From Trichocoleus sp. (GTDB lineage Bacteria; Cyanobacteriota; Cyanobacteriia; Elainellales; Elainellaceae): a DNA stretch of 64,000 nt. Each line of letters begins with the position of its first letter. Positions within the stretch are counted from its first letter, which is position 1. The notes under the pieces were generated by a model. It had not been told where the DNA came from. It worked only from the letters and a program-made list of their open reading frames with translations, and did not search any database. Shown here one piece after another: positions 4,020-64,000 of the stretch. Made by a program: the position numbers and the translations under genes. Location of the stretch: positions 1-64,000 of the forward strand of contig DATNQD010000067.1 of assembly GCA_036702865.1 (NCBI GenBank). The letters are read 5' to 3'.

Positions 4020-4315
4020 GCAAGGTAGATTCGATCGGTTAATGAAAGGATTGGATCGGGCTTGGCAAAATAGATGCCCTGATCTGATCCTTTTGTGCTG
4101 GCGCTAGCAATCATGATCAGATTGTTACAGCCTGTCCTGACCTTCCTTGCGTTCGCACATTGCTGGCTCTTGGATACAAACCGATCGCAGGCATTGATAA
4201 TCACTGCCTCATGGTTGAAATCGTGACAGGAAGACCAATGCCGATCGACAATTGAGTGCAGCCCTCTCCAGCGCATAACGCAAACTGGTGTACTTAGGAG
4301 TAAGATTAGAGCTTT

Positions 4316-5449
4316 ATGTATGACTGCATTGTTGTAGGCGCAGGTCCCGCAGGCGGTTCAGCAGCTTATCACCTGGCAAAACGGGGGCGATCGGTCCTCA
4401 TTCTAGAAAAAGAAGCTTTTCCTCGCTACAAACCCTGTGGAGGCGGCGTGTCCCCCCAAGTTGCTCAATGGTTTGACTTTGACTTTACGCCAGCGATTTC
4501 CCTCAAAATTACAGGTATCCGCTACACCTGGAAGATGGCAGACCCTGTCGATAGTCAGCTAAACGCCCTAGAGCCAATTTGGATGGTGCGGCGAGACGTA
4601 TTTGATCACTTTCTGGTGAAGCAAGCTCAGAATCAGGGAGCAGAGCTACGGGAGAATACTGCCGTCAGCGGGATCGAGTTTAAGGGCGATCGATGGCAGG
4701 TCATGACAGCCAATGGTCCTGTGGAAGGACGTTATCTAGTTGCAGCGGATGGTGCAAAGGGGTCGATGGCAAAATGGTTGGGCTTCAAAGACCGAAAGCG
4801 TCGGTTTGCCGGAGCATTAGAAGCCGAAGCCAGTGCAAATGTCGAAGACCCAGAAGTCGCGCATTTTGAGTTTGGCATGATCAAAAATGGCTATATCTGG
4901 AACTTCCCCAAAGCAGAGGGCTATTCGATCGGCGTAGGTACGTTTCGAGGCGGTGAGCCACAAGACTTTAAGAGCATTTTGACAGAATACGCAACGCTGT
5001 TTGGGATCGACTTGCAGAACTGTAAGCAATTTGGGCATCCGCTTTGTCTGTGGGACGGCAATCAGAAACTACATACCCAGAATGCGGTGCTGGCAGGTGA
5101 AGCAGCCTGTGTGGTCGATCCGTTTACAGCAGAGGGAATTCGTCCATCAATGTTTACTGGGGTGAAAGCAGCAGAGGCGATCGACGCCGCACTGGGGGGT
5201 GATCTCGACGCACTGGATCGGTACACCGAAACAGTAAACCGCGAGTGGGGAGATGATATGGTGTGGGCACAGCGAATCGGCAATCTTTTCTACCGAATTC
5301 CGAGCTTTGGTTATAAGGTTGGGATCAAGCGTCCTTCTGCAACTGAGCGAATGGGGCAAATTCTCTGTGGTCGCTTGCGCTATCGAGATGTGGCAACCCG
5401 CGCTCTGAAGCGTTTAACCACAGGACTTATTCCTGGCATGGGAAGCTAA
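4316..5449 (+). CDS. Geranylgeranyl-reductase-family FAD protein
   Basis: A 377-residue FAD-dependent oxidoreductase of the geranylgeranyl reductase family (ChlP and archaeal GGR relatives), which saturate isoprenoid double bonds. The N-terminus has GAGPAGGSAAYHLAKRG (residues 8-24) and the family hallmark PRYKPCGGGVSP (about 36-47) with the conserved cysteine. A second FAD motif, GEAACVVDPFTAEGIRPSM, lies near residue 260. It is not the chlorophyll enzyme ChlP proper, whose N-terminal motifs differ. The real substrate is unknown; a quinone or carotenoid-type isoprenoid is possible. It follows frr by about 300 bp on the same strand, a gene order I recall from other cyanobacteria. Confidence 0.85.
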   Translation: MYDCIVVGAGPAGGSAAYHLAKRGRSVLILEKEAFPRYKPCGGGVSPQVAQWFDFDFTPAISLKITGIRYTWKMADPVDSQLNALEPIWMVRRDVFDHFLVKQAQNQGAELRENTAVSGIEFKGDRWQVMTANGPVEGRYLVAADGAKGSMAKWLGFKDRKRRFAGALEAEASANVEDPEVAHFEFGMIKNGYIWNFPKAEGYSIGVGTFRGGEPQDFKSILTEYATLFGIDLQNCKQFGHPLCLWDGNQKLHTQNAVLAGEAACVVDPFTAEGIRPSMFTGVKAAEAIDAALGGDLDALDRYTETVNREWGDDMVWAQRIGNLFYRIPSFGYKVGIKRPSATERMGQILCGRLRYRDVATRALKRLTTGLIPGMGS

Positions 5450-61542: not shown

Positions 61543-62232
61543 TCATTTCTCTAGGTTGCCCTGTCTTTCGCAAGTAAAACCCTGTCGGTTCCATTCAGCA
61601 CGATCGATCGCTTCAAGCAACTGTAGATTTTGACAGGTGGGCTGATAAATTTGGCTGATCCCTGCCCAGAGTAAGCCGCGAGCCATATCTAGCCCCGTTT
61701 TAAGCCAGGATTCGCGATTGCCAGGAATTCCCTGTTCTGTAACAATTTCAGGTTCAACCCAAATGCCATGGGCTGCCAGCAAAATTCGTCCTAGCCATAG
61801 CGCTCTTGGCAGATGTGTGGGGGAGGTGATGAGCTTGACCTTGTGCACATGCCACTGCTGCAAGATAGGGGTGCTGTAAAAGAAATTGCCAAAGGTCGAT
61901 CGCGCACAGTTCTCTAGCCAAACTCGATGCATTGATGCGCCTGCTCGTTGAAAAATCAGCCAGAGGCAGGGCGGCGGCGAACCGCTAGAGATCAGAACTG
62001 GCACCTCTGGAAACTGCTGCACCAGACTCGCAACATAAATTTCGCGGCGAATGCTGCCCCCCAACACCAAAAACGCTTCTACAGGCTGACGGGCTGCCGA
62101 TCGCAACTGCAACCCCATCAACAACAGCCACATGGCTAAGAACAGCCCAATACCGATCCTAATTCGGCGAAAAAAGCTGAAGCGCGATCGATGCAATAAA
62201 TGATGCAATAAATATTGTTGCCCTCGCAGCAT
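61543..62232 (-). CDS. YdcF-like (DUF218) protein
   Basis: A 229-residue protein with one N-terminal membrane helix (IGIGLFLAMWLLLMGLQL) and a DUF218/YdcF-type domain: AFLVLGGSIRREIYVASLV, PVLISSGSPPPCLW, and VKLITSPTHLPRALWLGRI. Related proteins act on the cell envelope or as SAM-binding proteins, but no activity is known. It is divergent from the sulfate-transport genes. Confidence 0.75.
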   Translation of the reverse strand: MLRGQQYLLHHLLHRSRFSFFRRIRIGIGLFLAMWLLLMGLQLRSAARQPVEAFLVLGGSIRREIYVASLVQQFPEVPVLISSGSPPPCLWLIFQRAGASMHRVWLENCARSTFGNFFYSTPILQQWHVHKVKLITSPTHLPRALWLGRILLAAHGIWVEPEIVTEQGIPGNRESWLKTGLDMARGLLWAGISQIYQPTCQNLQLLEAIDRAEWNRQGFTCERQGNLEK

Positions 62233-62398
62233 TGCCTGCTTCCCTAGTCTGAGTAATAATTAAAGTCCGGTTTCCTGACCAAGTAACTGTACTTTATGGC
62301 TTAGGATAGAGAATGTCTTGATAAAAGGGTTTCAGGAATTTGATTCAGCAGGCTCTAGGAACCTGGGGAAGTATGGGCGCATGGGGAACGGAAGGGGC

Positions 62399-62806
62399 AT
62401 GAGTTGGGGTCGATCGCTCAAGAAACTAATCTCTCTTTTTTTAACAGGAATCATCGTGTCAGTGGGAATTGCTGCCCGTAATTGTCTGGGCAATTCCAAT
62501 CTTGTTGAATTCACCCTGGTTTTCTATGCTGTAACTCGGAGTGCCTACGAACAAATTGTTCCCAAGTTTGCTGCTAAGTGGAAAGCCGAGCATCAGCAGG
62601 ATGTGTTTTTCACTCAGAGCGATGGTGGGTCAGGGGCACAAGCGCGTGCCAAAGCCAGATTTCGTCCAGTTGAGCAGCAAGTCGCGCCAGAATTCGTGGC
62701 TCAATTCCCCAAGGTCGATCGACTCTTCACAGTGCAAGAACTCGAGGGCTGGAAGACGGCGAAAAGCAAGTTTTTTGATACAGGAGCAGTGTTTGACCAA
62801 ATCTAG
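62399..62806 (+). pseudogene. sbpA: sbpA with large in-frame internal deletion
   Basis: A 135-residue relic of the sulfate-binding protein of the CysAWTP ABC transporter. The N-terminal part keeps the signal-like segment and VEFTLVFYAVTRSAYEQIVPKF with the family stretch QDVFFTQSDGGSGAQARA. Directly after it the sequence jumps to KARFRPVEQQVAPEFVAQFP and FTVQELEGWKTAKSKFFDTG, which in intact SbpA comes about 200 residues later, near the C-terminus. The join lies near 62640-62656. The protein lacks the sulfate-binding body, so it cannot work as a binding protein. The frame is preserved. It precedes cysT at the usual place; the start (62399) and the lipobox are also uncertain. Confidence 0.75.
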
Positions 62807-62868
62807 GCACCGATCAGCAGCTAAGCTTGCCTTTCTCAATTCGCAGTTTTGTTTGGAGTATTAATGAC

Positions 62869-63717
62869 ATGACTTCTGTTTCCGAATCCCCAACTCGACC
62901 AGGACGATCGCGCAAATTTGCTCTGCCTTCCTTGCCCTGGGGCGTGACGATCGTTTATTTAACGTTGATGCTGCTGGTGCCGATCGCAGCCCTGACTTTG
63001 AAATCTAGCACGCTTGATCTAGGGCAAATTTGGAAAATTGCGACTGACCCGGTTGCCATTTCCACCTATAACGTTACTTTCTTGACCTCTTTTGCTGCGG
63101 CTTTGGTCAATGGGGTGGCTGGACTGATTATTGCCTGGGTACTGGTGCGCTATGACTTTCCGCTGAAGCGGTTAGTGGATGCGGCGATCGACCTGCCTTT
63201 TGCGCTGCCTACAGCGGTTGCAGGTTTGACTCTGGCAACTGTTTATAGCGACAACGGTTGGCTTGGATCTTTGCTGGCTCCCTTTGGCATCAAAATTGCA
63301 TTTACGCGCCTGGGCGTATTTGTCGCGATGCTATTTATCTCGCTGCCCTTTGTTGTCAGAACGGTTCAGCCTGTTTTACAAGAAACAGAGATTGATGTGG
63401 AAGAAGCTGCCTGGTCGTTGGGTGCGTCGCAGTGGCAAACATTTTGGCGCGTTGTTTTGCCGCCGCTGATGCCTGCGGTATTAACCGGGATCGCCCTGGG
63501 GTTTGCGCGTGCCGTTGGAGAATATGGTTCAGTTGTCATTGTCTCCTCCAACATTCCCTTCAAGGATTTGATTGTGCCTGTTTTGATCTTTCAGCGGCTA
63601 GAACAGTACGACTATGCGGGCGCAACCGTAATCGGAATGGTCATGCTGCTTATTTCGCTGGTTATGTTAATTGCAATTAACCTATTACAAGCTTGGGGAC
63701 GACGCTATGACGCTTAA
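62869..63717 (+). CDS. cysT: Sulfate ABC transporter permease CysT
   Basis: A 282-residue permease subunit (CysT/CysU) of the sulfate/thiosulfate importer. Six membrane helices and the cytoplasmic EAA loop, [21 protein letters not shown] (here split: [11 protein letters not shown] and [13 protein letters not shown]), are visible, followed by [14 protein letters not shown], a signature of sulfate permeases. ATG at 62869 is chosen with GGAG at 62855-62858; the longer frame from 62827 starts without one. It overlaps cysW by 11 bases, so the two are translationally coupled. Confidence 0.93.
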
Positions 63718-64000
63718 TCCTGCTTCGATCGATTCGCACGTTCAGCCTGATAGCCCCAAGCCAAATAGCCCTGCCAAAACAGGGACAGCCTCCTGGGTCA
63801 AGGGTGCTCTGATTGGGTTTGTTATTCTTTATCTCGGCTTAGTTTTGTTTATTCCGGCGCTCAATGTCTTCGTTCAGGCATTTACCGGGGGCATGGGCGG
63901 ATTTTTCAACACCTTCAGCGATCGAGCCTTTCTAAATGCAGTCAAGCTCACCTTGCTTATGGCATTCATTGCTGTTCCGGTGAATACTGTCTTTGGGCTT
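63707..64000 (+). CDS. cysW: Sulfate ABC transporter permease CysW (partial)
   Basis: The first 98 codons of cysW run off the window edge. It starts at ATG 63707, 11 bases inside cysT. A poorly conserved cytoplasmic N-terminus is followed by the first helix ([20 protein letters not shown]), then [19 protein letters not shown] and [20 protein letters not shown], typical of CysW. The rest cannot be judged. Confidence 0.9.

What the first reader, a model, noticed from the sequence alone, without database searches (positions are those of the whole stretch)
62399..62806. sbpA with an in-frame loss of about 200 codons inside an otherwise intact operon
The protein jumps from GGSGAQARA to KARFRPVEQQ, the start and end parts of the sulfate-binding protein. 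The transporter permeases downstream look intact. Either sulfate import uses another binding protein, or the deleted relic no longer matters. An in-frame deletion keeps translation and coupling to cysT, which may be selected.
Basis: partly seen in the sequence, partly recalled or inferred. Interest (0 to 1): 0.6.

Follow-up and report, generated by a model that had tools for sequence, protein, structure and literature searches.

The report
Deletion remnant of a sulfate-binding gene
A cyanobacterium has lost the middle three-fifths of the sulfate-binding-protein gene in its sulfate-import operon, but a complete second copy elsewhere in the genome very likely does the job, so this is ordinary gene decay backed up by a spare.

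Summary
Window 62399-62806 encodes a 135-aa remnant of SbpA directly upstream of intact cysT and cysW. Against the closest operon orthologs (G005, G023; about 360 aa) it lacks 203 consecutive codons (609 bp), in frame. The junction lies at 62647-62649 and shows only about 2-3 bp of inferred microhomology. Most of the sulfate pocket is gone, the lipoprotein Cys is replaced, and the remnant carries about three times more lineage-specific amino-acid changes than cysT, cysW or the other sbpA.

The genome holds one complete sbpA (C42:756-1835, 359 aa, no cysT/cysW beside it), two CysA candidates over the family cut-off, and no SulP permease. The two nearest genomes keep both copies intact. The best reading is that the operon copy is a pseudogene remnant and the orphan SbpA feeds the CysTW permease, as Sbp does for CysTWA in E. 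coli. A comparable case is published for Microcystis.

Selection for coupling to cysT is not supported: a 62-nt gap separates the genes, and one deletion in three is in frame by chance. Assembly error cannot be fully excluded without reads, but no repeat or paralog chimera explains it. Interest is low.

The parts
62399..62806 (+). sbpA remnant, 135 aa: signal-peptide region and first part of the mature protein joined in frame to the last ~52 codons
62399..62647 (+). N-terminal part (83 codons, to QAR); keeps the GGS loop (Ser45 of 1SBP); lipobox Cys replaced (AARN versus AACS)
   Evidence: alignment; 1SBP alignment; DNA match to G005
62647..62649 (+). deletion junction; TGC covered by both halves of the G005 match (2-3 bp inferred microhomology); 203 codons / 609 bp missing
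   Evidence: no direct repeats within 62300-62900
62648..62803 (+). C-terminal part (52 codons, AKARFRPV...FDQI)
62807..62868 (+). 62-nt intergenic gap between sbpA stop and cysT start; no start/stop overlap, no terminator-like site
62869..63717 (+). cysT, sulfate permease subunit, intact (405.7 bits to TIGR02139, cut-off 246.1)
   Evidence: conservation check
63709..64000 (+). cysW, permease subunit; start overlaps the end of cysT; runs beyond the window and is complete in contig C67

Best explanation
This is a decayed sbpA. A single deletion of about 609 bp, probably by short-homology (illegitimate) recombination, removed the middle of the operon copy and left an in-frame but non-functional relic. 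Sulfate import should still work because a complete orphan sbpA (C42:756-1835) supplies the binding protein to the CysTW permease of this operon, with CysA encoded elsewhere. The deletion, the spare copy, the intact permease and the lack of SulP are shown here. That the orphan protein docks on this CysTW, and that the remnant has no function, are inferred.
For: A 203-codon loss relative to operon orthologs. Mapped on 1SBP, residues from about 50 to about 260 are missing, including the SSGG loop (130-132) and the positions of Ala173 and Trp192; that these are sulfate contacts is my own knowledge of the 1SBP work. Further damage: lipobox Cys changed, and three positions invariant in all 61 compared SbpA are changed (Y to D, G to R, G to E). 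The remnant has 18 window-only amino-acid changes in 135 codons, versus 12/282 in cysT, 16/302 in cysW and 16/360 in the orphan sbpA (Fisher p 0.001-0.004). The genome has exactly one complete SbpA, with an intact lipobox, and its orthologs in G005 and G023 also stand away from cysTW. CysT and CysW show normal conservation. TIGR00968 gives two CysA candidates over cut-off (C59, C17), and PF00916 finds no SulP. Precedents: in E. coli Sbp lets the CysPUWA transporter work without CysP (PMC6731281, citing Sirko 1995); in Microcystis a MITE splits sbp in sbp-cysTWA while a second unlinked sbp exists (PMC11448079).
Against: The remnant has no stop and no frameshift, and its lineage-specific changes still favour codon position 3 (24 of 49; p 0.017 against one third), so decay is either recent or incomplete. 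The acceleration may partly reflect that the terminal parts vary more in general (the G010 control shows a weaker, non-significant excess). No expression or transport data are available.
Confidence: 0.85

Rival explanations
1. Assembly artefact: the assembler collapsed or mis-joined a full-length sbpA, so the deletion is not in the organism.
For: Reads are not available, and the assembly is a draft of 90 contigs. No second genome of the genus was available to confirm the junction.
Against: A collapse needs repeats, and none of 10 bp or more lies within 62300-62900. Both halves are operon-type (67% and 65% to G005), not orphan-type (43-44%), so it is not a paralog chimera. The point damage (lipobox, invariant residues, faster substitution) is independent of the join. 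The operon lies inside a 130-kb contig.
Confidence: 0.08
2. Retained mini-gene: the in-frame remnant is kept because its translation is coupled to cysT, or because the 135-aa protein modulates the transporter.
For: The frame is open over 135 codons, and third-position changes still dominate.
Against: There is a 62-nt gap to cysT, a one-in-three chance of being in frame, changed invariant residues and lost lipobox Cys, and faster amino-acid change than neighbours. Two other cyanobacteria have cysTW with no sbpA in front at all (L111, L112).
Confidence: 0.06

Closest known systems
Sulfate-binding protein SbpA of cyanobacteria (TIGR00971; solved relatives 5UM2, 1SBP, 6DDN)
   Same: N- and C-terminal parts align colinearly; same place in front of cysT-cysW as in relatives
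   Different: 203 internal residues missing, including most of the sulfate pocket; 24 bits to the family against a 155.5-bit cut-off
[quoted passage not shown]
   Same: Operon sbp damaged, cysTWA intact, second unlinked sbp in the genome
   Different: There an insertion in a laboratory strain that leaves the putative ligand-binding residues present; here an in-frame deletion that removes most of the pocket
E. coli sbp and cysPUWA: an unlinked binding protein serving the operon's permease (PMC6731281, citing Sirko 1995)
   Same: A binding protein encoded away from the operon can supply the permease (that E. coli sbp is unlinked is own knowledge)
   Different: In E. coli the operon-borne partner CysP is intact; docking has not been tested here

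Membership tests
Functional sulfate-binding protein (SbpA, TIGR00971) | Match over the curated family score (155.5 bits) along the whole length | tested here: not met
   23.9 bits, positions 11-59 of 315
Functional sulfate-binding protein (SbpA, TIGR00971) | Complete sulfate pocket (by 1SBP numbering Ser45, Ser130, Gly131, Gly132, Ala173, Trp192; list from own knowledge) | tested here: not met
   Only the Ser45 position remains; the others fall in the deleted stretch
Functional sulfate-binding protein (SbpA, TIGR00971) | Export signal with lipobox cysteine, as in relatives | tested here: not met
   AARN in place of AACS/AACN in the alignment; a nearby Cys (RNC) does not fit the lipobox rule
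sbpA pseudogene / deletion remnant at the ancestral locus | Colinear homology with intact orthologs at the same genomic place | tested here: met
   Orthologs in G005 and G023 lie between ndhF/ndhD-type genes and cysT-cysW, as here
sbpA pseudogene / deletion remnant at the ancestral locus | Relaxed constraint | tested here: met
   About threefold excess of window-only amino-acid changes; changed invariant residues; frame still open
Unlinked binding protein serving a CysTWA permease (works like E. coli Sbp) | A complete binding protein encoded away from the permease operon | tested here: met
   C42:756-1835, 359 aa, 289.6 bits
Unlinked binding protein serving a CysTWA permease (works like E. coli Sbp) | Docking to and transport by this CysTW | not testable with these tools
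   Inferred from the single CysT/CysW pair in the genome and the absence of SulP

The most novel reading that the evidence does not exclude
The 135-aa remnant is translated, exported in some form and retained as a small modulator of the CysTW permease or as a leader that tunes cysT expression.
Probability: 0.04. Interest if true: 0.45.

Novelty: new member of a known kind. Interest (0 to 1): 0.12.

Why it matters
It matters little beyond annotation. The short ORF should be marked as an sbpA pseudogene, and the orphan sbpA should be recognised as the likely sole sulfate-binding protein of this genome. It is a small natural example of a permease outliving its operon-encoded binding protein because a paralog can serve it.

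Tried and rejected
Chimeric assembly of the two sbpA copies: rejected, since both halves are operon-type. Repeat-driven collapse: no repeats near the junction. The missing middle part elsewhere in the genome: not found; the only other SbpA match is the complete copy. SulP permease as bypass: none. Translational coupling to cysT: 62-nt gap. Promoter and terminator scan: nothing beyond chance. In the tree of the terminal parts, WIN groups with G005 and G023, but that node has weak support (0.26); the node that also includes G010 has 0.91. Other genomes also have long end branches, so the tree alone does not prove acceleration.

Full report
Observation. The ORF at 62399-62806 (+) encodes 135 aa that read from a signal-peptide-like start through QSDGGSGAQAR directly into AKARFRPVEQQ...FDQI. 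The sulfate-binding-protein profile TIGR00971 matches only its first part (23.9 bits, positions 11-59). Downstream, cysT is over its family cut-off (405.7 bits against 246.1) and cysW, which continues past the window end in contig C67, has an open frame of 307 codons. The finding is confirmed.

Size and place of the loss. The nearest genomes with the same locus are G005 and G023 (same family, another genus). Their operon SbpA proteins (359 and 358 aa open frames) align colinearly with the remnant except for one gap of 203 residues (609 bp). At the DNA level the two halves match separated parts of the G005 gene and overlap by three bases (TGC, 62647-62649). This suggests 2-3 bp of microhomology; the ancestral sequence is inferred, not known. 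No direct repeats of 10 bp or more lie in 62300-62900. The locus is the ancestral one: in G005 and G023 the same two NADH-dehydrogenase-type genes lie on one side of sbpA and cysT-cysW on the other.

Could it still work? By alignment to the structure of the sulfate-binding protein 1SBP, residues from about 50 to about 260 are gone. Of the sulfate contacts known to me for 1SBP (Ser45, Ser130, Gly131, Gly132, Ala173, Trp192), only the Ser45 position remains. The lipobox cysteine of relatives (AACS) is replaced (AARN). Three positions invariant in all 61 compared SbpA proteins are changed, more than in any other sequence at that threshold; at a 95% threshold the window is not exceptional. Window-only amino-acid changes amount to 18 of 135 codons, against 12/282 in cysT, 16/302 in cysW and 16/360 in the orphan sbpA (Fisher p 0.001-0.004). 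CysT and CysW of the window are as conserved as those of relatives. The remnant still has no stop, and third positions still dominate its changes (24 of 49), so much of the branch was under constraint and the decay is probably recent.

Who binds sulfate? The genome has exactly one other TIGR00971 match: a complete SbpA at C42:756-1835 (359 aa, 289.6 bits, intact lipobox), with no cysT or cysW beside it. G005 and G023 keep both an operon copy and such an orphan copy (75-78% identical to this one), so the spare predates the deletion. The genome has a single CysT/CysW pair of this type, two CysA candidates over cut-off and no SulP permease. The most economical reading is that the orphan SbpA delivers sulfate to this CysTW. 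Docking is inferred.

Wider picture. Of 45 cyanobacterial cysT loci fetched, about 39 have a full-length sbpA directly in front (counted). L111 and L112 have none, and L098, L104 and L117 look broken or rearranged. The genomes of L111, L112, L098 and L104 hold complete sbpA genes elsewhere; that of L117 shows only fragments, and its cysT/cysW also look damaged, which may be assembly quality. Loss of the operon copy with a spare kept is therefore not unique to this genome.

Literature. [quoted passage not shown] The same paper cites Laudenbach and Grossman 1991 for sbpA mutants of PCC 7942 that still grow on sulfate while cysT, cysW and cysA are essential for uptake (PMC11448079). In E. coli, Sbp lets the CysPUWA transporter work without CysP (PMC6731281, citing Sirko 1995).

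The option 'another binding protein' is supported. The idea of selection for an in-frame relic coupled to cysT is not: the gap to cysT is 62 nt, in-frame is a one-in-three event, and the protein is diverging fast. Assembly error remains possible in principle because reads are not available, but the sequence gives no sign of repeat collapse or paralog chimerism, and the independent point damage fits real decay.

Verdict. An ordinary pseudogene remnant with a functional spare; a new member of a known kind; interest 0.12.

Noticed in passing
window 61543-62232 (-): A DUF218-domain gene (229 aa) lies between the ndhF-type gene and sbpA; in G005 and G023 the two genes are only about 0.5-0.7 kb apart with no matching ORF found, so it was gained here or lost there.
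   Followed up: partly
L111 and L112, upstream of cysT (about 4243-4886): Tildeniella nuda and Stenomitos frigidus have cysT-cysW with no sbpA in front (a kinase-like gene on the other strand instead); both genomes hold two complete sbpA genes elsewhere.
   Followed up: partly
L117:4076-6288: Hydrococcus rivularis NIES-593: sbpA is in two short overlapping frames and cysT/cysW look fused or damaged; no complete sbpA was found in that genome. Could be assembly quality.
   Followed up: partly
L104:3493-4789: Nostocales cyanobacterium HT-58-2: the N-terminal stretch of sbpA appears twice in different frames in front of cysT, as after a partial tandem duplication.
   Followed up: no
L098:3564-4810: Nostoc sp. 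CMAA1605: operon sbpA is split into two overlapping frames by a frameshift; complete copies exist elsewhere in the genome.
   Followed up: partly
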